Assembly: GCA_013360295.1 (NCBI GenBank)
Contig: JABWCL010000029.1
Coordinates: forward strand, 1-59,090
Direction: 5' to 3'
Length of the DNA stretch: 59,090 nt
Source: Ignavibacteriaceae bacterium
GTDB lineage: Bacteria; Bacteroidota; Ignavibacteria; Ignavibacteriales; Ignavibacteriaceae
Part shown: positions 7,014-41,525 of the stretch, piece by piece
How positions within the stretch are numbered: the stretch's first letter is position 1
Layout: the number at the start of each line of letters is the position of its first letter
The notes under the pieces: model-generated
Databases searched by the model: none
What the model saw: only the letters and a program-made list of their open reading frames with translations
Told to the model about the DNA's origin: nothing
Program-made: the position numbers and the translations under genes

Positions 7014-7510
7014 ATTTTTCTCAATAGTTTGGTACAAAATTAAGAAATAATAACTAAAAATAAGATGCAATAAGTCCGCTATGCAAAATGAATTAATGAC
7101 TTTAATTAGTATTCGAGTGGAGTCCAACGGTGGTGGTAATGTGAGTTCCCACAGAGCGGGAGAACTACTTACCTTCACGAGGTGGAATATAGAAGTACAT
7201 CGCATATACAGTTTACGGTTTTTTGGAGGAAAATGAGTTATAAAAACCGTTCACAGGTAAATAACCTATTTTACAATTTCTTAGTTTTGGAGCATTTTTT
7301 TGGTATAATTTACCTTTTGATTCGATTTCAGCTGTTTTTTTCACTTCCAGGGAGTTATTGCAGTCTAAGTTTTCCAAGCTTGTACGGGCATTCGGTTAAG
7401 TGCGGGAGGGTAAAACCCTAATATTTGGATGGCAAGGACTACTATTTTATTTGCTAAAACAGCGGCTATCTCGTAACTTTAAAGGATATTTATTTTTAAA
7501 AGGAGTATGA
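7014..7510. other. Divergent intergenic region with structured segments
   Basis: About 500 bases separate add (minus) from the TPR lipoprotein gene (plus). Bases 7134-7185 contain interleaved inverted repeats: GTAA/TTAC outer arms around AGTTC..CC / GG..GAACT inner arms. They may be a structured leader of add on the minus strand. Bases 7215-7223 (ACGGTTTTT) and 7242-7250 (AAAAACCGT) form a perfect 9-bp stem whose loop displays GGAGGA and an ATG at 7233. That ATG opens a 62-codon frame (7233-7421) rich in Phe, Leu and Ser. It looks non-coding in composition, so I do not call it a gene. Confidence 0.4.
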
Positions 7511-11348: not shown

Positions 11349-11363
11349 GTGAAGGAGAAGAAA

Positions 11364-12794: not shown

Positions 12795-12805
12795 AAGGCT
12801 AAATA

Positions 12806-15255: not shown

Positions 15256-15347
15256 TACGTAAATATAAAAATACGCGGGGAGGCATACAATTTTTAACAG
15301 CAAAAAATTAAAGCTTAATTCGTATTTTTGAATTTTGAAAATCAGAG

Positions 15348-16334: not shown

Positions 16335-16349
16335 ACGAAAGGATAGTGT

Positions 16350-17714: not shown

Positions 17715-17730
17715 ATATCATATTTTATGA

Positions 17731-17760
17731 GGGTTATCAGGATTCTGATAACCCTTATAT
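17731..17760 (+). terminator. Terminator-like hairpin
   Basis: A perfect 10-bp stem, GGGTTATCAG (17731-17740) and CTGATAACCC (17745-17754), with a 4-base loop GATT. The following sequence is only moderately T-rich. It ends the M20 peptidase unit. Confidence 0.75.
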
Positions 17761-17786
17761 TGACTTAGGAAAATCAACTTTATATA

Positions 17787-19753: not shown

Positions 19754-19761
19754 AGAAAGAA

Positions 19762-20310
19762 TTGAAAATATATACCAAAACCGGAGACAGGGGAGAAACA
19801 TCGTTATTTGGCGGAACGAGGGTAAGTAAAAATAATCTGAGGCTTGAAGCTTATGGTACTGTGGATGAACTCAACTCCGCTCTCGGATTATGCATTTGTG
19901 CTTCCGTCGCTGAAGACGTTCAGGAACTCCTTACCGAACTGCAGAACCGCCTGTTTGACGCAGGTTCTGACCTGGCGACTCCGTCTGATTACTCCGGCTC
20001 AAAGATCAGTGTGCCACGCATAAGCGGGGAACATATAGAAAAAATAGAAAGTGCTATTGATCGTTTCGATTCATCATTACCGGCATTAACCGGTTTTATT
20101 TTACCAGGGGGAAGTGAGTCCGCAGCGCGGCTTCACCTTGCGCGCAGCATTTGCCGAAGGGCTGAACGGCACGTTGTGGCATTACAAATGGGAGAGGAGA
20201 TAAACCCTAATTTGGTTATCTTTCTTAACAGGATCTCAGATCTATTATTTGTTCTTGCCCGTTACGAAAATAAAGTATCAGGCAAAGGGGATGTTAACTG
20301 GACAAAATAA
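19762..20310 (+). CDS. pduO: ATP:cob(I)alamin adenosyltransferase, PduO type
   Basis: Makes adenosylcobalamin from cob(I)alamin and ATP. The 182 residues show the PduO-family N-terminus KIYTKTGDRGETSLFGG, the YGTVDELNSALG motif, and the RSICRRAERHV helix that holds the active-site region. The start is a TTG at 19762 with AGAGAAAG upstream. The stop ends 5 bases before the tmRNA gene. A need for adenosylcobalamin (methylmalonyl-CoA mutase or ribonucleotide reductase) is implied, but no such gene is in the window. Confidence 0.93.
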   Translation: MKIYTKTGDRGETSLFGGTRVSKNNLRLEAYGTVDELNSALGLCICASVAEDVQELLTELQNRLFDAGSDLATPSDYSGSKISVPRISGEHIEKIESAIDRFDSSLPALTGFILPGGSESAARLHLARSICRRAERHVVALQMGEEINPNLVIFLNRISDLLFVLARYENKVSGKGDVNWTK

Positions 20311-20315
20311 TTTAA

Positions 20316-20668
20316 GGGGGTGCACTGGCTTCGACGGTGTCAATACTGCTTTGAATGGCGCATCGTGTTTCCCGGAAGCACGTTAAAAAGTCGGGAAAAC
20401 AATTAACTGGCGAATCTAATTACGCCCTCGCTGCTTAATTAATAGTTAAGTAGCCGTCTGCCGGATGTTTGCCCATCGGTAACCGGACAGGCGTCGTTTA
20501 GATGGGATTGCCGAGCCCCGTACTCTTGAAGGCGAAGTGAAAACTTAAAGGGAAAGCCTGCTGACCCCTAGTCAGTTTGGTAATAGCAGGTTTAACAAAA
20601 ACTGACTACATGCGTAGAGGTTCATCGTGGATTTTCATCGGACGCGGGTTCGACTCCCGCCACCTCCA
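20316..20668 (+). ncRNA. ssrA: Transfer-messenger RNA (tmRNA)
   Basis: Rescues stalled ribosomes. The 5' end GGGGGTGCACTGGCTTCGAC pairs as a 7-bp acceptor stem with CACCTCC at 20661-20667, and the T-arm GGTTCGACTCC is intact. The tag frame starts at GGC 20409 and reads GESNYALAA then TAA (20436-20438), very like FCB-group tags. The CCA tail is not encoded. The last part of the gene is duplicated at 27952-27975, because an element has integrated at the 3' end. The copy here remains complete. Confidence 0.95.
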
Positions 20669-20669
20669 C
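20646..20669 (+). repeat. Left attachment site (attL), 24-bp core
   Basis: A 24-base sequence starting GGGTTCGACTCCCGCC at the 3' end of ssrA, identical to 27952-27975. tRNA and tmRNA 3' ends are standard targets of tyrosine recombinases. This side keeps the intact tmRNA. Confidence 0.95.
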
Positions 20670-20723
20670 AAATATTTTTACTAACTTGTTTTATTGTAAT
20701 GGTTTACGGGGATTCAAATTTAA

Positions 20724-20746
20724 TTTCGTATTTGGTTCGTATAAAA
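20724..20746 (+). repeat. Left arm-type repeat, two TTCGTAT boxes
   Basis: TTCGTAT occurs at 20725-20731 and 20736-20742, exactly 11 bases apart, followed by AAAA. The 23-base block matches the one at 27802-27824 at 20 positions. Its place 55 bases inside attL fits an integrase or excisionase arm-binding site. Confidence 0.7.
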
Positions 20747-20873
20747 CTTAAAAAAACCTGATAGTTTTTAACCGTTGCAAGTGCCTTTAGGTTCGATTAC
20801 AATTCTTGAAATCCCTCATTTTTTACTTATATTGCATACAGAAAATTTATCGTTTGCCTTGATAGTTTTCATT

Positions 20874-20908
20874 AACCCGCTAAGATCACTTCAAAGCGGG
20901 TTTTTTAT
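20874..20908 (+). terminator. Rho-independent terminator after ssrA, inside the element
   Basis: AACCCGCT (20874-20881) pairs perfectly with AGCGGGTT (20895-20902), followed by a run of T. It reads in the ssrA direction and lies inside the element. The element may thus supply a terminator to replace the native one it displaced. Confidence 0.85.
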
Positions 20909-21138
20909 TTTATTCGGTTCAAGGTGCATACTGAAATAGTATTCTTCGCTAAGGTTTCGAAACGGTGAACTTGATATTTATCAAAACCAAGTTCTTTTAT
21001 TTTTTCTTCTTTTGTATTTTCAAACGTTGCAGCGGTGCAACTTTTGAAATTATTGCTGCGCCTGTCCCCGCCTTGTACTTTCGGCATCTTTGAAAATATC
21101 TCTCCGATTCTCGCTTCGGCATAGTATGAAGGGCTGGG
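20905..21138 (-). pseudogene. Remnant of a phage-type protein with a GGDRRS motif
   Basis: A 60-codon frame (20905-21087) reads MPKVQGGDRRS, then EKIKELGFDKYQVHRFETLA. I recall this pattern from small phage and element proteins, in which a GGDR(K/R)S stretch precedes an HTH-like segment (xLGxxKxQxxRxExxA). The same frame continues upstream as YYAEARIGEIFSK before hitting a stop near 21143, so the homology starts before the only ATG. It therefore looks 5'-truncated or frameshifted. It lies at the attL-proximal end of the element. Confidence 0.45.
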
Positions 21139-21430
21139 AATTTATCAGGGTTGCATAACTCCGCCTTTGTGGTTTAGCCCGGTACCATTACCCCGAAACC
21201 TGAACAGGATTAAAATCACTTCTGGAATAGCCCAAATTCTTGATTAGGCGCGTTCTGGGGCGCGTTTATTACGATCTGGATAGTTAGTGCGGGGTTTTTA
21301 ATTTTCGCTGTTATAGGGGGGATTTTGTATTTTTTGTTTTTTTTCGAATTAGAAGATTGTGCCTAATAGAAATCATTTCTGCTTTTTTCTGTTACCCATA
21401 TTAGGCTTTTTTGCGTTTGGGTTTGAACAC
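21139..21430. other. Non-coding end of the element
   Basis: No gene seen. Two hairpins are present: GCGCG-type arms around 21248-21265, and GCCTAATA (21361-21368) with TATTAGGC (21399-21406) followed by six Ts. The second has a nested AGAAAT/TTTCT hairpin and could act as a terminator in the plus direction. Confidence 0.4.
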
Positions 21431-22015
21431 CTAAGGAACATTACCTGACACTTCAAAGTTTTTTAAGTACCGTTCAGCCGCACCCAGCTTGTTTAGTACC
21501 CGCTTATATTTGCGTGTTGGTTTTCCCTTATAGTACTTCGTAAAACTTTTCTCGGAGAATTGCCCCTGTTCGTAATCTTCAGCCTTAACAGCCGCAAACA
21601 TTTTTTCATATTTACGGTAAAGGTGCGAAACTATCTCCTTTTCATAATAAGCATTAGGCGCGGCGGTACGGTGAACAAACACGGCTTTAATAAAGTGCAA
21701 TGTTCGGCACCGTACACCTGTCGCCGGACATCTTAAATACCAGGATAAACCTTTTCCAAGATTTGACGGAACGGATTCAAGATTAATTTTGTAACTCACA
21801 GGGTGCCCCCTTATTTTGTAGCTTAGTTCCAAATACGGAACGGCTTCAGTAAGATTCGATTTCAGCCGGATCAAGTAATTTCCGTAATCGGTATTAATTC
21901 TAAAGGTGTTAAATACAATGGATTCCGGTTCAAGGAATCCCCATTGCTTCAGTTTCCTTATTGTCAAAGTGAAACAATCATCAAGGATCACGGGGAAAGT
22001 CTTTTGAAATGCCAT
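21431..22015 (-). CDS. Element protein of unknown function with CPxTGxRCRxL motif
   Basis: A 194-residue basic protein without a signal peptide or membrane segment. The centre reads LRCPATGVRCRTLHFI, then FVHRTAAPNAYYEKE, a pairing I recall from uncharacterised proteins of Gram-negative bacteria and their elements. The two Cys could help to bind a metal. The C-terminus is Lys-, Tyr- and Arg-rich (YYKGKPTRKYKRVLNKLGAAERYL), compatible with nucleic-acid binding. It is the last intact gene of the element on the minus strand, separated by 85 bases from the gene before it. Function unknown. Confidence 0.7.
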   Translation of the reverse strand: MAFQKTFPVILDDCFTLTIRKLKQWGFLEPESIVFNTFRINTDYGNYLIRLKSNLTEAVPYLELSYKIRGHPVSYKINLESVPSNLGKGLSWYLRCPATGVRCRTLHFIKAVFVHRTAAPNAYYEKEIVSHLYRKYEKMFAAVKAEDYEQGQFSEKSFTKYYKGKPTRKYKRVLNKLGAAERYLKNFEVSGNVP

Positions 22016-22100
22016 TTCATTAATTCAAAATAATAGAAAATTAGCCAAAATATTTAGAGAATCAGGTATTTATATCCGTTTATAAGAACCCGGTTCGGCT

Positions 22101-22361
22101 TCAGATTTTCCAAATATCCGCCATTAAATCGCCGTCATCATCACCCTTTTCGGCTTTGGGCAAAACATAGGGGATAATACTTTTCAGTAATTCGCACCGC
22201 TTAGCCGGATCAAGTGCCCTTAGCATCTCCGGTAGATCGTTCAGTTCCATAACAAGAATTTTTTTCAGTTTGCTTTTAATCTCTTTATGATCCATATCGT
22301 TAAGGTCTCCCAGCCCGGTGATCGGTTTGGGCGTCTTGCTTTGTGTTCTTTTTGTTTTCAT
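22101..22361 (-). CDS. Small unknown element protein
   Basis: An 86-residue protein with a basic N-terminus (KTKRTQSKTPKP), a helical middle (HKEIKSKLKKILVMELNDLPEMLRAL) and RCELLKSIIPYVLPKAE. The shape resembles the N-terminal half of small terminase-like or DUF5681-like phage proteins, but this is only a resemblance. It overlaps the upstream gene by 4 bases (ATGA), so the two are translationally coupled. Confidence 0.6.
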   Translation of the reverse strand: MKTKRTQSKTPKPITGLGDLNDMDHKEIKSKLKKILVMELNDLPEMLRALDPAKRCELLKSIIPYVLPKAEKGDDDGDLMADIWKI

Positions 22362-22705
22362 TTTTTACCTAAAATCTGATTTTTATTGTTACAAAGTATG
22401 TTCAAAGTATTCTGAAGGGGAATATACTCGGGCTGTGTGAACGAATTAAAGTAATCGCTTAGTGTTTTTATCATAAAATCGATAAAGTCATTTTTGAAGC
22501 CCGCGCTAATAAGCCTTTCCCGGATTATTTTTATTGCGTTTCCCGGTCTCAACTTCAGCGCGTTAAGGATATGAACCGATTTTATAAATTGTTTTCGTGC
22601 ATTTTCTCCGTCAATTTTGATAATCCTGCATTCAGCTTCCATTTTAACGGTATTTGCCCAGCGGTAAATAATTTCAAAGTCTAATAAATTCGCTTGATAT
22701 TCCAT
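22358..22705 (-). CDS. Small unknown element protein
   Basis: A 115-residue, mostly helical protein (LLDFEIIYRWANTVKMEAECRI, then LRPGNAIKIIRERLISAGFKNDF). I do not recognise a family. It lies 18 bases after the helicase gene and overlaps the following gene by 4 bases, so it belongs to the replication transcript. A helicase-associated role is possible from position only. Confidence 0.6.
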   Translation of the reverse strand: MEYQANLLDFEIIYRWANTVKMEAECRIIKIDGENARKQFIKSVHILNALKLRPGNAIKIIRERLISAGFKNDFIDFMIKTLSDYFNSFTQPEYIPLQNTLNILCNNKNQILGKK

Positions 22706-22723
22706 ATTAATTTCCCTTTGTTA

Positions 22724-24091
22724 CTAAAAAGGTGATTGATTGTTTTTTTTTGAGTACTCGGACATTTGCCCAAATTCATTAAGTCTAAGGCTGATATATT
22801 GATTTCCTTCAGTATGACGCGAAATATCCATTTTCAGGACAAAATCATTTTTATCGAAATTGATTTTCTCTTTTGAACCCGGCGCGCTGGGGATACTTTC
22901 AAGTCCGGTAGCAATCGGATTAATGGTAATGAATCCATAATCCACATCGCGCGCCAATGCCAATGATCCTGCAAGATTGCCAAAACTTGGGATTTTATTT
23001 CCTGTCTTTGCATTTGTGAAACCTTCGCGGTTTAATTGCGCGGTCATAATTATTACAACATTTAAATCAATAGCTGTCTGCTTAAAGAATGAAGAAATAT
23101 AATCTAACTTTGAATATGTGCTGTCAAATTTCCGGGCTGAATCAATTAAGCCTAAGTAATCAATCATAAAGATTTTTACATTTTTCCTCTGTGAATAAGC
23201 TTTAATCTTGCTTTTGATTGATACTTCTGTGAAGTCTCCTTCGCTGATGAAAATATTCCTTAAAATGTCGTTGCACTTATGTTCCGCAACATTAAATTTT
23301 GTAATCTGTTCGCCCGTAAGATTCACGGGATTTCTAAGTGTCCCGCTTGGTATGCCGGTTATGATAGAAATTATTTTGTCTTGCATTTCGCTTGTAGTCA
23401 TTTCTTTAGTAAATATCGCACCGGAAATACCCTGCATTGCAAAATCAATAATCCAATTAAGGGCAAGGGTTGTTTTCCCGCTTTTATATAGTCCGGCAAT
23501 CCCCAAATAGTTTCCCGGGCGGAAACCGCCTGTAACTTTGTTCACTCCCGGATAATCTGTTAGGAAATATTGATAAAAGTTTTCTTTGCTGTTATGTTCG
23601 TAACGTTGTCGAATTTGATCATACTGATCTAATAAGGATTTTTCTCCCTTGAATTTCGTTGCCAGCTTGTCCTTAATTTCGGTAAGTTTAGAAATTCCAT
23701 CTTCAAGAATGCTTAAGCCATCGATACTGTTTTGCGATTCAGAAAGCAGGTTTGAAAAAATTTCTTCGGCAAGAAGGGAATGAGATATTTCATATAACTT
23801 TGGAATCTCGTATCCTTCAATATCAAGGGTTTTGTCAGGCAAGTACGCGAAGGCTTCAGTAAATAGCTGATATGTTTTCGCGTCTAATTTAGCCGCTCGG
23901 AAGAGTATATCATTTTTTTCTTGATCATTCAAACCTGTAAGAAAAGAAACAAGTCCCTTATAAGCTTCAGGAAATGCGTCAATGTGCGGGGCGATAAGAT
24001 CAATTTTGTTAGGTTCTTTACAGCAAACCGATAATATTCCCAGCGCGGTTTGTTCGTGAAGATCAGTTTTAATTTTTCTGTTTACTTTCAT
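22724..24091 (-). CDS. DnaB-like replicative helicase of the element
   Basis: A 455-residue RecA-fold helicase. The N-terminal helical domain (about 1-140) is DnaB-like but divergent. The ATPase domain has Walker A GLYKSGKTT (200-208), Walker B IFMIDYLGLID (307-317) and the AQLNREG motif (351-357) typical of the DnaB family. A Cys-Cys pair near residue 23 is notable. It lies 7 bases downstream of the replication-initiation-like gene, the usual pairing of loader or initiator with helicase on phages and small elements. It suggests the element replicates autonomously after excision. Confidence 0.85.
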   Translation of the reverse strand: MKVNRKIKTDLHEQTALGILSVCCKEPNKIDLIAPHIDAFPEAYKGLVSFLTGLNDQEKNDILFRAAKLDAKTYQLFTEAFAYLPDKTLDIEGYEIPKLYEISHSLLAEEIFSNLLSESQNSIDGLSILEDGISKLTEIKDKLATKFKGEKSLLDQYDQIRQRYEHNSKENFYQYFLTDYPGVNKVTGGFRPGNYLGIAGLYKSGKTTLALNWIIDFAMQGISGAIFTKEMTTSEMQDKIISIITGIPSGTLRNPVNLTGEQITKFNVAEHKCNDILRNIFISEGDFTEVSIKSKIKAYSQRKNVKIFMIDYLGLIDSARKFDSTYSKLDYISSFFKQTAIDLNVVIIMTAQLNREGFTNAKTGNKIPSFGNLAGSLALARDVDYGFITINPIATGLESIPSAPGSKEKINFDKNDFVLKMDISRHTEGNQYISLRLNEFGQMSEYSKKNNQSPF

Positions 24092-32660: not shown

Positions 32661-34280
32661 CTAGAATCTCACGGTGAGATCAATGAATAACCGGTTCTGG
32701 GTTATAGCCCGGTCCGAGACTCTTTCAAAATTTAAGCCTGCACTTAATTTCCTGCTGAAGGAATAATAAGCATCGGCAGAATAAACGTGCTGCTCAAGCC
32801 GGTAATTGCTTTTAAGAAAATGATAATTGTAATATTTGTAACCGGCAGATATATCGATAAGCGCGAATAAATTTTTAACCAGGTTCAGGCCGGCGCTGTA
32901 GCCAGAGGAAAAACTATTTGTAAGCCTGGTATAGGAAACGGAGGGGCTTGCTTCCAGATAGGGGAGTGAGAAGTAATTAACGTTAACACCGAAATTCAGA
33001 TTTGGCTTTGCATCGCTCTTCTGACTGCGGAATGAATTATTAAGCCCTATCGTTAGCCCCCTGACCGGACGAATCACCAGGTTGAGCCTGATTCCGCGGC
33101 GGAGTTCATTGATAATGATACTGTCGAGGAAACTTTTATACGTTTCATAGTAGATTACGTTTCTTCTGGCGTCGTAAGAGATGCCGGCGGAAAAGAAGTG
33201 AGCAGGAGAATACCGAAGAGAAGTATTCAGGCTCGTGAGTGTGAACCCGGAGGACTCCACACCGCTTTCTTTTTTGTAAAGGTCAAACTCCGATGAAAAG
33301 AAAAAGTATAACCTGTGAGTAAAGTTTATCATATTCTGATAATAGAAAAACCTTCTGTCAATTTCGGATTTGTTCATCTGCTGAAATACACCGGCGCTTT
33401 GCTGAGTAGTTGCAATCCCAATAGTATCAGGACGGCTGACGAAGAATCCAAACTGCATAAGAGATGAATTGTAGCCGTAGTAACTGTAATCCGGACGCGA
33501 TCCCGCGACAACCCCGGCTTTAAACTGTGAAAATATTCCGGCAGCGATAACACCATCCACCGGGCCAAGGCTAGACAATTCATTGCTTTGAAATCTTCCG
33601 AGCCTTAGTTCATACTGCCCGCCGGGACTGTAAGCAAAATTGAAGTTGTAGATTTTCAGGTTCTCAAAAAACGGTTTATCCTGCTTAAAGAAAGACCTTG
33701 AGGTATATGTATAATTTGAGTAAGTCTGAAAATCGATACCGCTGTTCGCCAGGTTGTACAAATTGTACGAGAGAGTATATCGCCACCTCTGCCATCCCCT
33801 GGAGGAAATATCACCGGAATTAAAATCAGAGGAGGACTGAACAGAAAACCTGCCATTATTTTTAAGTGTGCGTCCGGAAATTGACCTGTCGCTGGGTGAA
33901 AATTCCGTCTTCTTCAAAGAGTCTTTTCCTTCAACCGGTTCTTTGGTGCGTGTTGTATCATAAACAATTAGATTATCAGTTAACGGAAACGCGAAAACCT
34001 TCATTCCGCGTGCGGGAGAGAATGATCCGATCTTTTCTCCAGCCACAGAGCGTGTCGAAATAAAACGTACCAGGATCGCCGGCACGCCGACGCCTTTGTC
34101 AACAGCGAAAATAGTATCGCCTGTCCGAATTCCCGCGGTTGAAGGAAACTCAACGTAGATATTTTGTGAGGAGAAATAAGTTATTATTCCTTCGGCAGTA
34201 CTACGGGTTACCTGCGGAAGCAGGTTGCTGAAACTCAGGACAACGAGAAATACGGAAAACCTAATGATCGATCTACCCAT
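32661..34280 (-). CDS. Outer-membrane beta-barrel, candidate porin of a cytochrome conduit
   Basis: A 539-residue exported protein. After the signal peptide comes a small beta domain (about 25-110, with VEFPSTAGIRTGDTIFAV). A Ser/Lys-rich linker follows, and then about 380 residues of alternating aromatic strands (RWRYTLSYNLYNL, YELRLGRF, HRLYFFFSSEFDLY, IRLNLVIRPVRGLTIGLNNSF) that end in a terminal Phe (LFIDLTVRF), as barrels do. Its size would suit about 18-20 strands. It starts 3 bases after the 31-heme gene stops. By analogy with known porin-cytochrome complexes, it could sheathe the multiheme protein through the outer membrane. That role is inferred from position and fold only. Confidence 0.75.
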   Translation of the reverse strand: MGRSIIRFSVFLVVLSFSNLLPQVTRSTAEGIITYFSSQNIYVEFPSTAGIRTGDTIFAVDKGVGVPAILVRFISTRSVAGEKIGSFSPARGMKVFAFPLTDNLIVYDTTRTKEPVEGKDSLKKTEFSPSDRSISGRTLKNNGRFSVQSSSDFNSGDISSRGWQRWRYTLSYNLYNLANSGIDFQTYSNYTYTSRSFFKQDKPFFENLKIYNFNFAYSPGGQYELRLGRFQSNELSSLGPVDGVIAAGIFSQFKAGVVAGSRPDYSYYGYNSSLMQFGFFVSRPDTIGIATTQQSAGVFQQMNKSEIDRRFFYYQNMINFTHRLYFFFSSEFDLYKKESGVESSGFTLTSLNTSLRYSPAHFFSAGISYDARRNVIYYETYKSFLDSIIINELRRGIRLNLVIRPVRGLTIGLNNSFRSQKSDAKPNLNFGVNVNYFSLPYLEASPSVSYTRLTNSFSSGYSAGLNLVKNLFALIDISAGYKYYNYHFLKSNYRLEQHVYSADAYYSFSRKLSAGLNFERVSDRAITQNRLFIDLTVRF

Positions 34281-34283
34281 TAT

Positions 34284-36647
34284 TTAATCAGTCATCTTTC
34301 GTGGGTGTCTGAGGCTTCTGTCCTCGCCATCGGGATGGCAGTCAAAACAAGCCGAACTAAGATACTGATAGCCGTTGACGCCTGAATGTTCGTTATCCAT
34401 ATCCGTGCGGTTATGTTCGTGACAGGTAACGCACGAAAAAACCGCAAAGTTAGCCGGATTAGTATGGCATTGCTGGCAGTCAGACCACTCATTTCTGTGT
34501 TTACCGCTGAATATCGGGAAGTATTGCTGATCGTGATTAAACGTAGAAGGTGTCCACGATGACTGTCCGTGACAATCAGTACAGTCTTCCGGGAACCTCA
34601 GACTTACGTGGTTAGGGTTTGTCGCTGAGTTATAGTCCTGAGTGTGGCAGGCATAACAGGTGTTAGGTGTATTTGTATAATTACCGTTATGACAGTTTAC
34701 ACAATTATTCCTGATGTTAAAATGCGCTCCGGCAAGGATATAGTAATTATTGTGGACCGGGAAAGATGCCGGACTCCATCCGGGATTTGTTGTATGGCAG
34801 TCGCTGCATAAGGAGGATAATCCGAGCAGGGTATGATTTGGATTTGTTGCAGCCGCAAAATCATCCTGATGGCAATCTGTGCAAACGCCTGATGCCGTGG
34901 TAACAGAACCGGAGTGACAATCCGAGCAGGCAGATAGAGCGTGCCCGCCGGAAAGCTGGAAACCCGTTGAAGCGTGATCGAACGAAGAGGGAATCCACGC
35001 GGTGGAAGAATGGCACTCACTGCAGTTCTGAGGGAGCCCTGCTGTAAGGTGATTAGGGTTAACAGCATTATTGTATGCTGAAATATGACAACTCTGGCAG
35101 GTTGCCTCTGTCCCCTGATACTGGCTGGTGTGACAGTTTGAGCAGTTAACGTTAGCATGCGCCCCGGCTAACTGAAATCCCGTAACACCATGATCATATG
35201 AAGCGGGGAGCCAGGCAGTGGTAGTGTGGCAGTCAGTACAGGCACCGGTAAATCCTGCGGCGGTATGATCCGGATTTGATGCATTATTCCGCTCATTAGT
35301 ATGGCAGGCAGCACACTCAACTGATGGAGAAGTTGAAAAGCCTGAGACGTGGCAGTCACTGCATTCTGCCGCAATATGCGCGCCTGTTAAGGGAAACTGC
35401 GAGAGGCTATGATTAAAAGCGCCGAGGGTGTTGCCGTCCGGGTGACAACTCAGGCACGCGCTGCTTTGATATATGTATCCGCTGACATCGTTGTGTTCAT
35501 CGTCCATATCCTGCTTATTGTGTTCGTGGCAATCAACACAGGAAAAAACGGAGTAGTTTGAAGCAGAAGTATGGCAATCCGAGCATTGCTGCCACTCATT
35601 ACGGTGCTTTCCGGAATAAATCGGGAAGTATAACTGGTCGTGATCGAACTGAGCAGGAGTCCAGCCGTTTGTAGTGTGGCAGGTTTCGCAAGTTAGGGGA
35701 AATCCCGCACCCTGATGGTTTGGATTCGTCGTGGCGAGGTAATTATCATTATGACAGGAGTTGCACGTAGTGGGCGTTCCCGCGTAACCAGATGAGTGAC
35801 AGTCAGCGCATACTACAGTAATATGTCCCCCTGTGAGCGGGAAGGAGGTAGTGCTATGATTAAAGTTTGCGGGCTTCCAACCGTTGATCGAATGACAGGA
35901 CGTACAGCTCGTACTGAAATTATTTGCCGTGTGATTCGGATCGGTAACTGACGCATAGTCGTTGCTATGGCACGAAAAGCAATCTTTACTCAGTCCCGTA
36001 AAATTGCCGGAGGAGTGACAAGCAAAACAGTTTGGTATTGCGTGGCCACCGGTCAATGGAAAGAATGCGTGAGCGAATTCAGACAGAGCCCACCGTGTCT
36101 GAAGCATACTGTGGCACTGTTCACAGTCTTTAGAGAAACCTGAGGCGACGTGATTCGGATTTGAAGTAGCATTAAAATCTGCCTTGTGACACTCATAACA
36201 GGAGATGCCAGGTGATTCAAAATTAAGTTCAGCTGCACCGGTATGGCACTGGATGCAATCAGCGGTCCTGTGTGCGCCGGCAAGGGGAAACCTGCCCGCC
36301 TGGTGAAGTCTGTAAATATCGGTTACAAGCCAGCTGTTTGTATTGTGGCAGGTTGCGCAGTCCGGGGATACTGATGCTTTATGCATATCATTATGGCAGG
36401 AAGAACACTCCGGTTTTGCCTTGTCAAAAACCAGCGACCCGTGACACTGAATACAATTGACATTTTTATGCTGCCCGCTGAGAGTAAAACCGGTGGAACT
36501 ATGGTCGAATTTCAGTTCCTCCGCGCTGATCTTCCAGCTCGCGGTTGTATGGCACTCCACACATTCCCTGGCAAAAGTGGTGCCGTGTGGTGATTGCGCG
36601 CAGATGTATACCTGGATTAAAATTATCAGGAGTGGCAGGTAACGCAT
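34284..36647 (-). CDS. Multiheme c-type cytochrome with 31 CxxCH motifs
   Basis: A 787-residue exported protein with 31 CxxCH heme-binding motifs by my count. The repeat unit is roughly NPNH-x4-F-x3-CxxCH-x4-W-x-PA-x-F-(D/N)H-x4-FPL-x-G-x-H-x4-CxxCH, giving spare His residues for bis-His ligation. The protein is two halves. The segment around DHDQLYFPIYSGKHRNEW up to SACLSCHPDG (about 335-402) is repeated near the C-terminus (about 705-772), with almost every residue type kept. The signal peptide (YLPLLIILIQVYICAQ) has no good lipobox. The start overlaps the 20-heme gene by 22 bases. It is expected to form a long heme wire in the periplasm or at the surface. Confidence 0.92.
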   Translation of the reverse strand: MRYLPLLIILIQVYICAQSPHGTTFARECVECHTTASWKISAEELKFDHSSTGFTLSGQHKNVNCIQCHGSLVFDKAKPECSSCHNDMHKASVSPDCATCHNTNSWLVTDIYRLHQAGRFPLAGAHRTADCIQCHTGAAELNFESPGISCYECHKADFNATSNPNHVASGFSKDCEQCHSMLQTRWALSEFAHAFFPLTGGHAIPNCFACHSSGNFTGLSKDCFSCHSNDYASVTDPNHTANNFSTSCTSCHSINGWKPANFNHSTTSFPLTGGHITVVCADCHSSGYAGTPTTCNSCHNDNYLATTNPNHQGAGFPLTCETCHTTNGWTPAQFDHDQLYFPIYSGKHRNEWQQCSDCHTSASNYSVFSCVDCHEHNKQDMDDEHNDVSGYIYQSSACLSCHPDGNTLGAFNHSLSQFPLTGAHIAAECSDCHVSGFSTSPSVECAACHTNERNNASNPDHTAAGFTGACTDCHTTTAWLPASYDHGVTGFQLAGAHANVNCSNCHTSQYQGTEATCQSCHISAYNNAVNPNHLTAGLPQNCSECHSSTAWIPSSFDHASTGFQLSGGHALSACSDCHSGSVTTASGVCTDCHQDDFAAATNPNHTLLGLSSLCSDCHTTNPGWSPASFPVHNNYYILAGAHFNIRNNCVNCHNGNYTNTPNTCYACHTQDYNSATNPNHVSLRFPEDCTDCHGQSSWTPSTFNHDQQYFPIFSGKHRNEWSDCQQCHTNPANFAVFSCVTCHEHNRTDMDNEHSGVNGYQYLSSACFDCHPDGEDRSLRHPRKMTD

Positions 36648-38203
36648 CTGATATCTTCCATTTTGTATTTAATAAATGATCCTTCCTGTGTAACAACCGA
36701 TTTGTGACATTTTGAACAATCGGCATTTTTATGGGCGCCGGTCAGCGGGAATCTTGAGTTGTCGTGATTGAACACTGCCGGTTTCCAAAATGAAAATGAA
36801 TGACACTTTTCGCAGTCAGACTTGCCCTCTGCCGCGAATTGACCGAAATGATTATCCTGATGACAATTTATACAATTTGAATTTAATGACGCAAACTGAT
36901 AGCGCACATTGTCCGGATCATTTTTATCTGTGTGGCACGCAGCACAATTAATTTCCGAGTGTCTTCCGACGAGTTTGAATCCGGTAGTGTTGTGGTCAAA
37001 TGTGACTTGCATCCACCCGTTAACACTATGGCACGATTCGCATTTTCCGTCAGGCAGGAATTTCCCTGTCAGCTCTTCTCCGTGCACATTGTTGTGGCAG
37101 TCGATGCATTCTCGCCTAAGATTTGCAAAATGAAACTCAGTACCTTTGAGATGGCAGGAGATGCACGGGACTGAAAGGTGGCTCCCCGCGAGTTTAAAAT
37201 TCAGTTTGTTGTGCGACTCGATGGTGTAACTTGAAGGTGAAAAAGATGCCGGAGTGTGGCATTCGGAACAATCTCTGGTCGTGCCCTCTTTCACGAATTG
37301 CCCCTTATGGAAATCGCTGTGGCAGTCCGTACAATAAGTATGTTTTACGGAAGAGGTCATAGAACCTTTATGGCAGGAAGAACATTCGACTTTAGTGTGA
37401 GATCCGACGAGCGGAAACTTTGTCCTGTTATGATCAAAACCGGAGAGACTTACAGATTTGAAAGAAACGGTATTATGACAGTTCGAACAGTTGAGCCCGA
37501 ATTTCCCTTCGTGAACATCATTGTGGCAGTCAGAACAAGAGGCAAATTTCGCAATACTAAAAATGAGATGACCATCGTTAGTAGTGGCAAAATTTTTATG
37601 ACAGCCAGTACATTCAACTCTGATATGCGAATCACGGAGCCTGAAAGAAGTTTTATCGTGATTAAAAAGTTTAGCCGGACTGAATCCTTCTGTTGTATGG
37701 CACGCAGCGCAATCACTGCCAAGTGTTTTGTTATGTTTATCTGAGTGACAGGTTGAACAATTACGGCTAAGCCCGAGATAAGTGCCGCCCCGGGATTTTA
37801 TTTTGCTGTCAGTAATCTTCCCTGAATTATGACAATCCTGGCATTTTACTTCAGAGTGTTTCCCGGTGAGTGGATAACCTGTTTTATTATGGTCAAAAGC
37901 ACCGGGGTCGAATTTGATCAGTTTAAAACCTAAACCGTGGTGTTCACTGTGGCAGGCAAAGCACTCCTTGTTCCGCACATCGGAGGAAGCGTGGTACCCG
38001 CGTCCGTTATTTATTAAAGTTCTGATTTCTGAATGACAATCGAGGCATTTTTGATTGGTGACCTTTTCCCCAAGCACGTGGCACTTAGTGCAATTGCTTA
38101 AGCCTTCCAGTTTGCTATGAGCCTTGGAGAGATCGCCGGGAGATATCTGAGAATAAAGCAGAGCCGGAAAAAGGAAAAGCAGAGCTGAAAGCGATCGTAA
38201 CAA
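36626..38203 (-). CDS. Multiheme c-type cytochrome with 20 CxxCH motifs
   Basis: A 525-residue exported protein with 20 CxxCH motifs by my count, from CTKCH (about residue 38) to a terminal CVTCHS. The repeat FDHNKTGYPLTGKH-x4-CQDCH is the same as in the 31-heme partner, so the two arose from one family. A signal peptide is present (SALLFLFPALLYSQ) without a lipobox. The start is a TTG at 38203, preceded by an AGG site about 9 bases upstream; no ATG is in frame upstream. It overlaps the 31-heme gene by 22 bases. It is likely the periplasmic shuttle or the inner part of the heme wire. Confidence 0.92.
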   Translation of the reverse strand: MLRSLSALLFLFPALLYSQISPGDLSKAHSKLEGLSNCTKCHVLGEKVTNQKCLDCHSEIRTLINNGRGYHASSDVRNKECFACHSEHHGLGFKLIKFDPGAFDHNKTGYPLTGKHSEVKCQDCHNSGKITDSKIKSRGGTYLGLSRNCSTCHSDKHNKTLGSDCAACHTTEGFSPAKLFNHDKTSFRLRDSHIRVECTGCHKNFATTNDGHLIFSIAKFASCSDCHNDVHEGKFGLNCSNCHNTVSFKSVSLSGFDHNRTKFPLVGSHTKVECSSCHKGSMTSSVKHTYCTDCHSDFHKGQFVKEGTTRDCSECHTPASFSPSSYTIESHNKLNFKLAGSHLSVPCISCHLKGTEFHFANLRRECIDCHNNVHGEELTGKFLPDGKCESCHSVNGWMQVTFDHNTTGFKLVGRHSEINCAACHTDKNDPDNVRYQFASLNSNCINCHQDNHFGQFAAEGKSDCEKCHSFSFWKPAVFNHDNSRFPLTGAHKNADCSKCHKSVVTQEGSFIKYKMEDIRCVTCHS

Positions 38204-38325
38204 AAATGAGTACCTGATGAAATAGTAATAGTATAAATTAATAAAAACTTTGGAATAATATAAAAAATTGTGCTTTTATTTATAAAAAGTAGCTGGTGGG
38301 AATGAGGAAGGGGAAGGCAAAATTA
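38204..38325. promoter_or_regulatory. Gap in the electron-transfer cluster, possible internal promoter
   Basis: 122 very AT-rich bases between the oxidoreductase gene and the 20-heme gene. It is the only sizeable gap in the cluster, so a second promoter for the outer (cytochrome/barrel) half is plausible. I cannot name boxes with confidence. Confidence 0.3.
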
Positions 38326-39660
38326 TCAGGAATGTTTAAGAATTGCATCTCCGAATTTCTTTGTAATTCTGATACCGGTTTTCTCAAGAAACGCATTAGG
38401 CAGTTCACCGCCTGCGAATACATATACAAGATCGTTGGGTATCTCCTTAATACCTCCTGAAGTTTCAGAGAGTATTACTTTATCCGGCAGAATTTCTTTT
38501 ACCGTTGTGTTGAGCAATATATCAACCTTGTTTTCTGACCTGGCAGATTCAATTCTTTCAAGATTCTTAGGTTTAAGCCTGGAGAAGGATTCGCCGCGAT
38601 AAGAGATGGATACATTATTACCTTCATCCGCGATCAGCATCGCGGACTCGATTGCAGAGTCTCCGCCGCCAACAACCAGAACATTTTTGTTCTTAATTAA
38701 TTCGGGTTCGAGCAGGCGGTAATAAACCTTCTCCCCCTCTTCTCCTTTTACACCGAGTTTCCGGGGAGTACCGCGCCTTCCGATTGCTATGAGTACTGAA
38801 GCAGACGTGTAGTTCCCTCCGGATGTGGTAATGTTAAAAAATTCACCTGACCGTTCGATTGATTCAACCTTTTCCCTCTCGCTGATTTTAATATTATTTT
38901 TCGAAAGCACGCTTTTCCATAGAGTCAGCAATTCGGCCTTAGAGGTTTCTCCGAGCTTAACTGTACCGTGAAGAGGGAGAGACATCGCTGAGGTCATCAC
39001 AATTTTTGCGCGAGGAAAAGAATATACTGTGCCCCCGAGCGTGTCCTGTTCAAAAGTAACAAATTTAAGCCCTAATTCTTTTGCCCTGAGTGTTGCGGAT
39101 ATACCCGCAGGACCGGCGCCGACAATAATAATATCATAAGCAGCCCCTTCAGTGCGGTTTAATTTTTTTGATAGGTAACTGACTGCCTGTTTTCCCTGCT
39201 CGACCGCGTTTTTTATTAAACCCATTCCACCAAGTTCACCGGCGATGAATATCATTGGAACGTTAGTTTCAAATTCCTGGCTTACGTGCGGCAGGTCAAC
39301 CCCGCGTTTTTCAGTCCCGATATGAAGCGAAATCGCCTGCACAGGGCAGGCGTGGAAACAAGCTCCGTGCCCCACGCAGCGGGAAGCGTTTATTGTTGAG
39401 GCTTTTCCGTTAACGAGTCCGAGTATATCTTTTTCAGGGCAGGCTTCGATACAGGCGGCAGTTCCGATACACATATCAGGGTTAACAACTGGGTGGAGTG
39501 AGACGGGTTCATATAACCCAAATTCTTTTGCTTTCTGGATTTTTTCTTCCGTCTCCCTGTTTTTTTTTGCGCCTCTTTTCAGGTAAAAGAAAAAGATAAA
39601 AAATACGGCGCCGATAACGGCACCGTATATAATTAACTCTTCAATGAACACTTCGCTCAT
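38326..39660 (-). CDS. Membrane-anchored FAD oxidoreductase with a two-motif iron-sulphur domain
   Basis: 444 residues. An N-terminal membrane segment (LIIYGAVIGAVFFIFFFYL) precedes a ferredoxin-like domain with CIGTAACIEACP (about 63-74) and CVGHGACFHACP (about 92-103). In both, the second Cys of the usual CxxCxxCxxxCP is replaced (Thr and His). I recall the same substitution in relatives, so it is probably a family trait and not damage. Then comes a thioredoxin-reductase-like flavin domain (IIIVGAGPAG for FAD, VLVVGGGDSAIE for NAD(P)H) without a CxxC active site. It could pass electrons from NAD(P)H to the membrane. It overlaps the TPR gene by 4 bases. Confidence 0.85.
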   Translation of the reverse strand: MSEVFIEELIIYGAVIGAVFFIFFFYLKRGAKKNRETEEKIQKAKEFGLYEPVSLHPVVNPDMCIGTAACIEACPEKDILGLVNGKASTINASRCVGHGACFHACPVQAISLHIGTEKRGVDLPHVSQEFETNVPMIFIAGELGGMGLIKNAVEQGKQAVSYLSKKLNRTEGAAYDIIIVGAGPAGISATLRAKELGLKFVTFEQDTLGGTVYSFPRAKIVMTSAMSLPLHGTVKLGETSKAELLTLWKSVLSKNNIKISEREKVESIERSGEFFNITTSGGNYTSASVLIAIGRRGTPRKLGVKGEEGEKVYYRLLEPELIKNKNVLVVGGGDSAIESAMLIADEGNNVSISYRGESFSRLKPKNLERIESARSENKVDILLNTTVKEILPDKVILSETSGGIKEIPNDLVYVFAGGELPNAFLEKTGIRITKKFGDAILKHS

Positions 39661-40253
39661 TTAGTACGTTCGAGCGCGTCCTTGGTCATTTCTTCCAGCT
39701 CATGGCCAGGCTTGCCGGCAAGGACTTCCTTCCAGTATGTGCGGGCTCTTAAAGTATCACCCTTTGTCGCGGCAACCGCGCCAAGGTTGAACTTTGCTTC
39801 AAGATTATTTGGGCTGACTTTCAGAATCTGTTTTGTAATATCTTCTGTCTTATCAAAATCCTGTTTGAAATAGTAAACACTTGACAGGGCGAACATCATA
39901 TCAATCCTTTTGGGGTCTTTTTTGATGATCATTTCGTAATATTTACCTGCTTCCTCGGGCTGATGTGCCTGGAAGAGAAGGTCCGCGAGCTGCCTCATTT
40001 TAAGTGTATCGGCGGGATTTGATTCGACATCTTTTTTCATCGCGTCAATACGTTCTTTGATCTCTTTCTGAACGTTTGCGGCTGACGGCGGGGTACCGTC
40101 CTTCGGCAGATTTCTGTGAATATCATCATCAGGCATCTGCGCTGTTGCGTTTGGGGAAGTGCCGTTGTTAACATCCGTAAAGAAGATTATAACTACCGCG
40201 GCGAGAACTATAATTCCCAGGTATACGTAAATAGGTGAAAACTTAAATTTCAT
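39657..40253 (-). CDS. Membrane-anchored TPR protein of the electron-transfer cluster
   Basis: 198 residues: an N-terminal membrane segment (IYVYLGIIVLAAVVIIFFTDV), a linker, then TPRs (MRQLADLLFQAHQPEEAGKYYEMII, then AKFNLGAVAATKGDTLRARTYW). The plan is like the TPR subunits of cytochrome c maturation (CcmH/CcmI, NrfG type), which present apocytochromes to the heme ligation machinery. A role in assembly of the 51 hemes encoded downstream is an attractive inference. It sits between the cytochrome b-like and oxidoreductase genes, with 9 bases to the first and a 4-base overlap with the second. Confidence 0.8.
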   Translation of the reverse strand: MKFKFSPIYVYLGIIVLAAVVIIFFTDVNNGTSPNATAQMPDDDIHRNLPKDGTPPSAANVQKEIKERIDAMKKDVESNPADTLKMRQLADLLFQAHQPEEAGKYYEMIIKKDPKRIDMMFALSSVYYFKQDFDKTEDITKQILKVSPNNLEAKFNLGAVAATKGDTLRARTYWKEVLAGKPGHELEEMTKDALERTK

Positions 40254-40262
40254 TCTTTCTCC

Positions 40263-41132
40263 TTAAAAGATCCATTTATAACCAAAAATAATTGTAACTG
40301 CTACGTGTATTAACATAATAACGAACATTGATATAGCAAAGGGTAAATGAAAGATATGCCAGTAATGAAAAAGCCTGTGCATCACTTTCAGAAAACCTAT
40401 TTTGCGGGTGAGTGAGAGTTTAGATCCAACCAGCTTAAGCAAATGTTTTTTCTCACTTGTGCCGGTGTTTGCCAGTTCAGCTCTTAATTGCTGAAGTATT
40501 GAGCCGGCTTCTCTCCCTGAAGCAAGGTAAGACTTGAATGCCTCCCCTAACGACGCTCCAGTACCCTCAACAGACCGCCGAAACGACGCGACGCGATCGA
40601 GAATGCGAGGTGAGACGATACCGGACTTAGATATTTCCTCCTGCAGAGAAACGTTAAGCTCATCAATTTCCTTCAGGCTTAGCTCATTTCCTTTTATGGA
40701 GCGGGGTATCTGCAGGTAAATGAACCTTCCGGCGAAACCGCTGAGAACAACTGCCACCATACTCCAGAAACTAATTGAAACTATACCGCCGAACTTAAAC
40801 GCAGTGTGGAAGAGGACAAACACCGGGCCGAGAGTACACATAAAGATGTGGAATTCCAGCCAGTGCTTAAGGAACCCTATATTGAACAATCCGCGTACAC
40901 GTTTGCGGATCATATAAGAACTGACTCCGATAATCATCATCAGCGTTCCAACGATTCCGAGCCCGTGCCCAATGCTTCCGCTTGGCTTAAGAGAATTATG
41001 CTGTTCGATCCAGAATCTTTCGGAGACAGGGGAGGAATAATAATTATGCCCGTTGATAATTAACAGGGAAGCGGAGATTATGCCGATCACAAAAAATGAC
41101 CCAATATAAAGCTTATGCAGGGTGTTGTTCAT
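40263..41132 (-). CDS. Membrane cytochrome b-like protein
   Basis: A 289-residue integral membrane protein with about five hydrophobic segments: near the N-terminus ([19 protein letters not shown]), around [56 protein letters not shown] and the C-terminal [19 protein letters not shown]. Histidines sit in or near the segments ([39 protein letters not shown]), a pattern like diheme cytochromes b of the b561/NarI kind. A soluble helical loop of about 90 residues interrupts it (about 145-240). It is first in the cluster and probably links quinones or the FAD/iron-sulphur protein to the periplasmic multiheme proteins. Confidence 0.75.
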
Positions 41133-41219: not shown

Positions 41220-41525
41220 CTAACCGGAAGTAACTTCCGTTAAAACGTTGTATTTAGAAGTGTTATTTACTTTAAGCGATTCGATCTTGGAAATCAGCAC
41301 GCTTAACCTTTCGTTCTCAGCGTCGTCATATGCGTCATAGGCTTCGTAAGAAGAAAAGATAAATATCTCTTCGAAATTATTCGGTTTGCCTTTGATTTCA
41401 TAAACGCCGTAACTTTCGAGGCCTTCTGCGCTGATAAGAGATTTCAGCTCCGGAAGCGCAGCAAGGTAAACGTCCCGCTTGGCAGCCTCTATCTCATATT
41501 GTACCGCAAAAACAACTTTGCTCAT
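41220..41525 (-). CDS. Small ABM-like alpha/beta-barrel protein
   Basis: A 101-residue cytoplasmic protein. The order beta (KVVFAVQYEI), helix (YLAALPELKSLI), beta (SYGVYEIKGKPNNFEEIFIF), helix (YDAYDDAENERLSVLISKIESL) is that of dimeric alpha/beta-barrel proteins, such as antibiotic biosynthesis monooxygenase-like domains. No catalytic residue can be named. It lies 13 bases downstream of dapF and is probably co-transcribed. Confidence 0.65.
   Translation of the reverse strand: MSKVVFAVQYEIEAAKRDVYLAALPELKSLISAEGLESYGVYEIKGKPNNFEEIFIFSSYEAYDAYDDAENERLSVLISKIESLKVNNTSKYNVLTEVTSG

What the first reader, a model, noticed from the sequence alone, without database searches (positions are those of the whole stretch)
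32661..41132. Compact trans-envelope electron-export cluster with 51 heme motifs
Six minus-strand genes run in order from inner to outer membrane: cytochrome b-like protein, anchored TPR, membrane-anchored FAD/iron-sulphur oxidoreductase, 20-CxxCH protein, 31-CxxCH protein and beta-barrel. Overlaps of 4 and 22 bases and gaps of 3 and 9 bases (one internal gap of 122) make it a near-continuous unit. This is what a full NAD(P)H- or quinol-to-surface route would need. Porin-cytochrome complexes are established in iron-reducing bacteria, but this gene set (FAD/Fe-S input, TPR, two related repeat cytochromes, small barrel) does not match Mtr, Pio or Omb/Oma as I know them. Related clusters may already be described in Ignavibacteria, which I cannot check.
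Basis: partly seen in the sequence, partly recalled or inferred. Interest (0 to 1): 0.85.

Follow-up and report, generated by a model that had tools for sequence, protein, structure and literature searches.

The report
NAD(P)H-linked porin-cytochrome wire of Bacteroidota
A conserved set of genes in Ignavibacteria and other Bacteroidota appears to build an electron wire from a flavin enzyme inside the cell, through both membranes, to very long heme proteins at the surface; it resembles a known but untested porin-cytochrome type, with an added enzyme that may tell where the electrons come from.

Summary
The six genes are real and as described: 20 + 31 CxxCH motifs, every overlap and gap as stated. 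The b-cytochrome, FAD/Fe-S, 20-heme and barrel genes occur in the same 28 of 59 related genomes; elsewhere only fragments were found. The core recurs across Bacteroidota, including on a plasmid of the cultured type strain Emticicia oligotrophica DSM 17448.

The b-cytochrome carries the published motifs of the PCC3 inner-membrane protein.

What the passages on PCC3 that I read do not mention is a FAD/Fe-S partner. Here it is as constant as the b-cytochrome, lacks disulfide-reductase cysteines, and has an invariant His where a ferredoxin Cys is expected. Distant relatives of the b-cytochrome sit beside NAD(P)H reductases of other families. That favours NAD(P)H over quinol input.

The 20-heme protein is nearly fixed (20 or 23); its partner has 13 to 64 hemes, mostly in three-heme steps. 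This fits a fixed envelope span plus a free outer wire. Verdict: new variant of a known kind. Electron source, direction and surface exposure are inferred.

The parts
40263..41132 (-). Five-helix b-type cytochrome (PCC3-type inner membrane protein, IMP): probable bis-heme b electron carrier across the inner membrane
   Evidence: Invariant H95/H109 and H262/H276 (13 residues between) in 16 relatives; two WX3HX13H in 79 of 80 and SGXXG in 80 of 80 relatives; DUF4405 matched by 10 of 16 family members, not by the window protein.
39657..40253 (-). Membrane-anchored TPR protein, probable cytochrome assembly factor (optional part)
   Evidence: TPR_2 E 9.7e-8; PF23914 TPR_CcmH_CycH E 4.8e-7, below its cut-off. 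A relative near 15 of 44 five-gene loci.
38326..39660 (-). N-terminally anchored FAD/NAD(P)-type oxidoreductase with a variant two-cluster ferredoxin domain: probable cytosolic electron input
   Evidence: Pyr_redox_3 E 2.4e-43, Fer4_10 E 1.8e-9. Second Cys of motif 1 is S 53, T 18, C 3, G 3, V 1 and of motif 2 His in 78 of 78. No CxxC in the last 300 residues in 74 of 74.
36626..38203 (-). 20-heme c-type cytochrome with near-constant heme number (20 or 23): probable periplasm-spanning wire
   Evidence: 20 CxxCH. 52 of 64 ORFs that do not touch a contig end have 20 hemes, 9 have 23, and three have 19, 10 and 8. Fewest changes on the FAD tree: 2 in 63 rows.
34284..36647 (-). 31-heme c-type cytochrome, one heme plus ten triheme units; variable-length partner, probable outer wire
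   Evidence: 31 CxxCH, 10 units. Relatives carry 13 to 64 hemes. Fewest changes on the FAD tree: 29 in 43 rows.
32661..34280 (-). 22-strand outer-membrane beta-barrel with a small N-terminal beta domain: probable porin sheath
   Evidence: AlphaFold2 pLDDT 77.2, 22 strands over residues 140-538 by my count. VIA-align Z 19.7, rmsd 4.6 over 340 residues to the TonB receptor Fiu; Foldseek best match FimD usher, E 6.3e-11.

Best explanation
The locus encodes a PCC3-like trans-envelope electron conduit with its own cytosolic input enzyme. Proposed path: NAD(P)H -> FAD of the anchored flavoprotein -> its two unusual Fe-S centres -> two b hemes of the five-helix inner-membrane cytochrome -> the 20-heme wire, which spans the periplasm and enters the 22-strand barrel -> the long triheme-repeat cytochrome, which carries electrons outward from the outer membrane. 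The TPR protein probably helps cytochrome assembly. Shown here: gene content, co-inheritance, motifs, barrel fold of the model, near-fixed versus variable heme number. Inferred: cofactor occupancy, contacts between the parts, membrane sidedness, surface exposure, NAD(P)H as donor, outward direction. Electrons taken straight from NAD(P)H across the inner membrane move charge outward as in NOX enzymes (recalled), so I expect redox balancing or reduction of extracellular metals or humics rather than proton pumping at this step.
For: Same 28 of 59 genomes carry all four tested genes; in 80 named loci FAD is found in 75 of 77, c20 in 59 of 63, c31 in 47 of 50 and barrel in 35 of 38 with enough sequence downstream. 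PCC3 IMP motifs in 79-80 of 80 against the description in PMC5566968. Large porin-like barrel model. The flavoprotein has no disulfide-reductase CxxC, and its six Cys in the window protein are those of the Fe-S motifs. Five distant IMP relatives on plasmids of Alteromonas, Methylophaga, Variovorax, Spirosoma and Sphingobium stand directly beside a flavoprotein with NAD(P)-binding domains and a 7- or 10-heme protein; in the Alteromonas and Spirosoma ones a hydrophobic stretch lies before the reductase domain. A ccsA-like cytochrome maturation gene lies near the cluster in Emticicia and in 6 of 80 loci. One cytochrome nearly fixed, one variable.
Against: No experiment. NAD(P)H binding rests on domain family and a YRx5RxK-like motif in 67 of 74. 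Both cytochromes show plain signal peptides by eye and no lipobox or T9SS tail, so no sorting signal supports surface exposure of c31. The authors of PCC3 proposed a quinone-active IMP and electron uptake. Homology of barrel and IMP to PCC3 proteins themselves could not be tested. The b-cytochrome model (pLDDT 72) gave no useful fold match. Distant IMP relatives were read in only 6 of 19 plasmid records, chosen by me. The genome also has CbcL-like and ImcH-like genes that could serve quinol.
Confidence: 0.58

Rival explanations
1. A PCC3 in the published sense: the b-cytochrome exchanges electrons with the quinone pool, and the FAD/Fe-S protein is a side entry or quinone-linked. The conduit exports quinol electrons.
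For: He et al. suggest a quinone-active cytb from the HX13H pairs (PMC5566968, passages). The spacing also fits cytochrome bc1-type cytb (same passage).
Against: The FAD gene is as constant as the b-cytochrome (28 of 59 genomes; 75 of 77 loci) and the best conserved of the four aligned (mean column identity 72% against 63, 59 and 48%). The organism also has separate CbcL-like and ImcH-like genes.
Confidence: 0.22
2. Electron uptake: the same parts run inward, taking electrons from Fe(II), minerals or partners to the flavoprotein or quinone pool.
For: PCC3 was proposed for iron oxidizers.
Against: Carriers here include Cytophagia, Saprospiria and Bacteroidales, generally organotrophs (recalled); NAD(P) reduction by Fe(II) is uphill (recalled).
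Confidence: 0.1
3. Periplasmic electron store: the cytochromes are charge capacitors or serve periplasmic reductions, and the barrel is an unrelated transporter; the barrel fold is nearest to TonB receptors.
For: Both cytochromes have plain signal peptides by eye and no lipobox or T9SS tail that I could see. VIA-align ranks TonB receptors first.
Against: The barrel is in the same 28 of 59 genomes as the cytochromes, with only short remnants in three others, follows c31 in 42 of 44 five-gene loci in order on one strand, and the model has no plug domain.
Confidence: 0.08

Closest known systems
PCC3 (He et al. 2017, PMC5566968, passages; Gallionellaceae survey PMC10734462, passages)
   Same: Porin, one near-constant large cytochrome (median 21; 21/24/27 in Gallionellaceae), one highly variable cytochrome (10-35 in Gallionellaceae, up to 85), ~300-aa five-helix inner membrane protein with two WX3HX13H and SGXXG.
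   Different: Found there in Alpha-, Beta- and Gammaproteobacteria; here Bacteroidota. No flavoprotein is mentioned in the passages read ('FAD' 0 times in the main text; supplements not read). Heme numbers here 20/23 and 13-64. Sequence homology untested.
Burkholderiales 24- and 49-heme cytochromes with an OmbB-like porin (PMC7399161, section 18 read)
   Same: Small large-cytochrome stable, larger one varying by insertion or deletion of CxxCH domains, porin next to them.
   Different: No flavoprotein or b-cytochrome mentioned in that section; porin called OmbB-like there, which could not be compared here.
NOX / ferric reductase / MsrQ / DUF4405 cytochromes
   Same: Flavoprotein feeding a bis-heme b membrane protein through paired His ligands (works like); DUF4405 shown to bind heme b (PMC11334425, passages).
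   Different: No PF01794 match at E<=10 in 16 members. The acceptor here is a multiheme c-type wire.
Triheme-repeat cytochromes such as TIGR04257 and PDB 3ov0 (I recall 3ov0 as Geobacter GSU1996)
   Same: Chains of c7-like triheme units.
   Different: Matches are below the TIGR04257 cut-off (21.5 and 27.3 bits against 40); here 4 to 21 units and tied to a porin cluster.
YpdA / thioredoxin-reductase family
   Same: FAD/NAD(P) two-domain fold.
   Different: 161.9 bits against a cut-off of 339.9; no CxxC; anchored ferredoxin domain added.

Membership tests
PCC3 | Inner membrane protein of about 300 aa, five helices, two WX3HX13H on helices 3 and 5, SGXXG on helix 4 | tested here: met
   289 aa; five hydrophobic regions; motifs in 79 and 80 of 80 relatives.
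PCC3 | Porin gene in the same cluster | tested here: met
   22-strand barrel model, gene next to c31. Published PCC3 porins mostly have more predicted strands, up to 42.
PCC3 | Periplasmic cytochrome with a large, near-constant heme number (published 21-27) | tested here: met
   20 or 23 in 61 of 64 complete ORFs: close, not identical; location not testable.
PCC3 | Extracellular cytochrome with large, variable heme number | tested here: inconclusive
   Number met: 13-64. Extracellular location not testable here.
PCC3 | Sequence homology of porin, cytochromes and IMP to Sideroxydans/Leptothrix PCC3 | not testable with these tools
MtrCAB/MtoAB/PioAB | DmsE/MtrA-family decaheme cytochrome | tested here: not met
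   TIGR03508 50.3 (c20) and 45.1 bits (c31) against 192.2; 20 and 31 hemes. A c20 profile does match 6r2q_A, which I recall as MtrA, at E 1.4e-4.
MtrCAB/MtoAB/PioAB | OmcA/MtrC-family outer cytochrome | tested here: not met
   TIGR03507 only for c20, 11.1 bits against 209.3. PF22113 (MtrC/MtrF domain) does match c31 at 55.1 and c20 at 39.2 bits, over its cut-off of 30.
OmbB-OmaB-OmcB | OmbB-type porin | not testable with these tools
   No OmbB sequence or model in the libraries used; the barrel matches no Pfam or NCBIfam family.
Ferric reductase / NOX domain PF01794 | Pfam match | tested here: not met
   No match at E<=10 among 16 members. The spacing of His pairs is shared.
DUF4405 cytochromes (PF14358) | Pfam match | tested here: inconclusive
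   10 of 16 members, best E 1.2e-5; not the window protein.
YpdA bacillithiol disulfide reductase / TrxR | Family score over cut-off and redox-active Cys | tested here: not met
   161.9 against 339.9 and 95.9 against 343.45 bits; no CxxC in 74 of 74.
Canonical 2[4Fe-4S] ferredoxin domain | Two CxxCxxCxxxCP motifs (recalled) | tested here: not met
   Second Cys is His in motif 2 in 78 of 78 and Cys in motif 1 in only 3 of 78.

The most novel reading that the evidence does not exclude
A quinone-independent electron export line: NAD(P)H is oxidised by a dedicated flavoprotein with a His- and Ser/Thr-modified ferredoxin domain that hands electrons directly to a PCC3-type b-cytochrome and on to a modular outer heme wire whose length each lineage sets by gaining or losing triheme units. 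This would be a complete single-cluster NAD(P)H-to-surface route across Bacteroidota, mobile enough to sit on a plasmid.
Probability: 0.45. Interest if true: 0.8.

Novelty: new variant of a known kind. Interest (0 to 1): 0.62.

Why it matters
PCC3 has been catalogued since 2017 and was still called functionally unverified in 2025 (PMC12442390, passages); what feeds or drains it at the inner membrane is open. The Bacteroidota version carries a candidate answer in the same gene cluster. It looks common: 518 stretches of the GTDB-220 collection encode relatives of its b-cytochrome (only the best 80 were read). It also sits on a 100-kb plasmid of a cultured type strain, so deletion, heme staining and current measurement should be possible there. 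It would extend candidate extracellular electron transfer to Saprospiria, Bacteroidales and Cytophagia as well as Ignavibacteria. The near-fixed/variable cytochrome pair offers a natural length series for studying heme wires.

Tried and rejected
Mtr/Mto/Pio: rejected, far below curated cut-offs. ExtN/ExtO: below cut-offs (34.1 and 33.0 against 200 bits). The TPR protein as a necessary part of the electron path: rejected, as it is optional. 'Small barrel': rejected.

Fold of the b-cytochrome: Foldseek gave no match at E<=0.001 and VIA-align mostly unrelated helical rows with Z up to 10.0, which the tool says may mean only a common arrangement. Two cytochrome b561 rows are there at Z 6.4 and 6.2, over 93 and 102 residues; no NOX row is among the 50 shown, which excludes nothing. 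No MtrB row is among the 50 rows shown for the barrel, which also excludes nothing. A profile of the b-cytochrome found no solved relative (best E 0.37), one of the barrel none either (best E 0.57).

Viral contigs: six partial relatives of the b-cytochrome, none with the cluster.

Literature: nine answered searches (open-licence PubMed Central only). In their listings and in the passages I opened I saw no paper that describes PCC3 or this flavoprotein-cytochrome set in Bacteroidota; most listed papers were not opened, subscription papers and supplements were not searched.

Results against my reading: in 80 loci FAD was missing in 2 of 77 with room, c20 in 4 of 63, c31 in 3 of 50 and barrel in 3 of 38. 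Some such cases are split rather than lost: in G002 the FAD gene lies about 15 kb from cytb, and in G022 and G006 parts are on other contigs. The barrel in G006 is seen only from position 119, and c20 in G050 has one in-frame stop, so 'same 28 genomes' is not '28 intact sets'. 14 of 47 c31 ORFs do not fit one plus a multiple of three hemes, among them a group of 24-heme proteins. c31 units are more alike within a protein than c20 units (mean best identity 54.7 against 39.3%), so easier recombination may explain part of the length change without a functional cause. The fossil-like copies show that the set is often dispensable. Contacts between the parts were not modelled; only two structure jobs were allowed.

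Rows dropped: ORFs touching contig ends; FAD ORFs under 400 aa and loci without exactly one complete c31 (or c20 under 19 hemes), leaving 76 rows in the tree, 43 scored for c31 and 63 for c20; proteins with fewer than four units of about 55 residues or more (63 c31 and 63 c20 kept). One search counts presence by BLAST at E below 1e-8.

Full report
WHAT IS THERE. The cytochromes have 20 and 31 CxxCH motifs; shuffled versions reach 4 and 3 at most in 1000 shuffles. The window is contig 55 of a 4.46-Mb genome of 92 contigs, estimated 100% complete. Pfam sees Pyr_redox and Fer4 domains in the FAD protein, Cytochrome_C7 repeats in both cytochromes, TPRs in the TPR protein, and nothing in the barrel or the b-cytochrome-like protein.

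ONE UNIT. The b-cytochrome query matched 31 of 59 relatives: 28 with long unbroken matches, two with broken copies (G013, G005) and one with a trivial fragment (G042). FAD (E below 1e-200) and c20 (E below 1e-200) are in 28 of 59 each; the barrel profile matches 31 of 59, of which 28 are long and three short remnants (G013, G014, G028). By my comparison of the four lists the 28 are the same genomes. Two of them have a flaw: the G006 barrel is seen only from position 119, and the G050 c20 has one in-frame stop. Of 12 genera sampled more than once, five have a species with the set and one without (g2, g4, g11, g34, g37). In loci read in full the usual order is cytb-(tpr)-FAD-c20-c31-barrel. In some genomes the parts are apart (G002: FAD about 15 kb from cytb; G022 and G006: other contigs).

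WIDER DISTRIBUTION. In 395 Bacteroidota genomes, 47 match the b-cytochrome profile, 40 of them at E below 1e-70 (my count). In named GTDB-220 genomes 518 stretches encode relatives; the best 80 were kept. They include Ignavibacteria, Bacteroidales, Saprospiria, Cytophagia (two Lacihabitans isolates) and a Flavobacterium bin. Of these 80, 44 have all five core genes, 42 of them in order on one strand, and 15 of the 44 have a TPR relative. With enough sequence downstream, FAD is present in 75 of 77, c20 in 59 of 63, c31 in 47 of 50 and barrel in 35 of 38. The c20 and c31 frames overlap by 19 coding bases in 41 of 61 pairs, which suggests coupled translation. In Emticicia oligotrophica DSM 17448 the cluster lies on plasmid pEMTOL02 behind ccsA, with 23- and 40-heme cytochromes and then a GW-domain protein. 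Relatives of that ccsA are in 6 of the 80 loci.

FIXED AND VARIABLE WIRES. Of 64 c20 ORFs that do not touch a contig end, 52 have 20 hemes and 9 have 23; the other three have 19, 10 and 8. The 10 and 8 are two pieces of one broken gene in L095. Of 47 such c31 ORFs the heme numbers run from 13 to 64, and 33 of 47 equal one plus a multiple of three (two of the 47 are pieces of one gene in L089). A profile of the window's own triheme unit finds 4 units in 13-heme proteins and 21 in the 64-heme protein. On a quick FAD tree of 76 rows, c31 heme number needs at least 29 changes in 43 scored rows and c20 two in 63. Sister rows differ by whole units, for example 43 hemes in L065 and 31 in the window. 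Units within c31 are more alike than within c20, so duplication is recent and going on in c31. My inference: c20 spans a fixed distance (periplasm and outer membrane) and c31 is free to grow outward; easier recombination in c31 is a partial rival.

THE INNER-MEMBRANE PAIR. The b-cytochrome has five hydrophobic regions and invariant His pairs with 13 residues between on the third and fifth. He et al. 2017 (passages read) describe the PCC3 inner membrane protein by the same marks: about 300 aa, five helices, two WX3HX13H, SGXXG. These are present in 79 and 80 of 80 relatives. Ten of 16 family members, not the window protein itself, match DUF4405, a domain of which one member was shown to bind heme b (PMC11334425, passages). 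The FAD protein is YpdA/TrxR-like but far below those families' cut-offs, and has no CxxC in its last 300 residues in 74 of 74. Its ferredoxin domain lacks the second Cys of both motifs (canonical motif recalled): His in 78 of 78 in the second; Ser 53, Thr 18, Cys 3, Gly 3, Val 1 of 78 in the first. In tblastn against plasmids the b-cytochrome finds 19 records. I read six regions. Emticicia has this cluster. Alteromonas, Methylophaga, Variovorax and Spirosoma have an FAD/NAD/2Fe-2S enzyme of the ferredoxin-NADP-reductase kind beside the relative and a 7-heme protein; Sphingobium has a TrxR-like enzyme with cNMP and Fe-S domains and a 10-heme protein. In the Alteromonas and Spirosoma enzymes a hydrophobic stretch separates an exported-looking N-terminal part from the reductase, which would leave the reductase in the cytosol. 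These relatives are distant (21-26% identity), and the two WX3HX13H are complete only in Emticicia and Sphingobium, the others keeping the HX13H pairs. This recurrent pairing is my main reason to prefer NAD(P)H over quinol input. NAD(P)H use itself is inferred; a YRx5RxK-like motif is in 67 of 74.

THE BARREL. AlphaFold2 with 15 sequences gives pLDDT 77.2, 22 strands from residue 140 by my count and a small beta domain at 29-97, with low confidence at 102-136 and 374-392. VIA-align puts it with TonB-receptor barrels (Z 19.7, rmsd 4.6 over 340 residues, Fiu) and Foldseek with ushers. The model shows no plug domain. Whether a cytochrome fills the lumen was not modelled.

COMPARISON. PCC3 was described in Alpha-, Beta- and Gammaproteobacteria with two large cytochromes (median 21 hemes periplasmic, 34 extracellular), a porin and the membrane protein. 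In Gallionellaceae the numbers are 21/24/27 and 10-35 (PMC10734462, passages). It is called functionally unverified in PMC12442390 (passages). The words FAD, Bacteroidetes and Ignavibacteri do not occur in the 2017 main text; its supplements were not read, and it notes that some other IMP clusters include another redox protein. A similar stable/variable pair with an OmbB-like porin is reported in Burkholderiales, and OmbB- and MtrB-like complexes in Ignavibacteria (PMC7399161, section 18). I therefore call the present set a PCC3-like variant with a dedicated flavoprotein, not a PCC3 proper, because homology to PCC3 proteins could not be tested.

LIMITS. No cofactor, contact, location or direction is shown. 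The organism also carries two COX1-family oxidases and CbcL-like and ImcH-like genes (names by my reading of the domains), so other routes coexist.

Noticed in passing
L147 (NC_018749.1, Emticicia oligotrophica pEMTOL02), 10899-23483: The whole cluster with a ccsA gene in front and a GW-domain protein behind lies on a plasmid of a cultured type strain.
   Followed up: partly
L167 (own genome, contig 72), 7503-11195: A 13-heme protein with a C-terminal b561 domain (CbcL-like by my reading) next to a 6-heme NapC/NirT protein (ImcH-like): a probable separate quinol route.
   Followed up: partly
L043, about 3701-8222: Beside the main cluster of G017 lie a second 34-heme protein, a 10-heme protein and a 195-aa short relative of the b-cytochrome.
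   Followed up: no
L173, 10759-13244: G033 has a second barrel copy preceded by a 10-heme ORF, away from the main cluster.
   Followed up: no
L148, L149, L150, L152: Distant b-cytochrome relatives with an NAD(P)H-type FAD/2Fe-2S enzyme and a 7-heme protein, near copper-resistance genes (Variovorax, Spirosoma), heavy-metal and cytochrome maturation genes (Methylophaga) or hydrogenase genes (Alteromonas).
   Followed up: partly
L172, 7528-10005, and five other genomes: 828-839-aa open frames in relatives: the one read joins a YpdA-like FAD domain to a NapH-like membrane ferredoxin part, another flavin-to-membrane wiring.
   Followed up: partly
L176 and L179 (IMG/VR contigs of 328 and 327 kb), about 7940-8410: Contigs filed as viral carry a ~150-aa homologue of the first half of the b-cytochrome; in L179 a 4-heme and a 7-heme ORF lie within 4 kb. 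Not checked whether the contigs are truly viral.
   Followed up: no
L060, L061 and genomes G013, G005, G014, G028: Decayed remnants of b-cytochrome or barrel, in G013 and G005 still between the same neighbours (dapF, PHP gene): loss of the set in some lineages.
   Followed up: partly
window 41220-41525: A 101-aa protein with a sub-threshold ABM (monooxygenase-like) match just upstream is 87% identical in the same-genus genome, the highest of the genes compared there; it goes with dapF rather than with the cluster.
   Followed up: no
window 20316-20669: tmRNA gene with tag peptide GESNYALAA.
   Followed up: no
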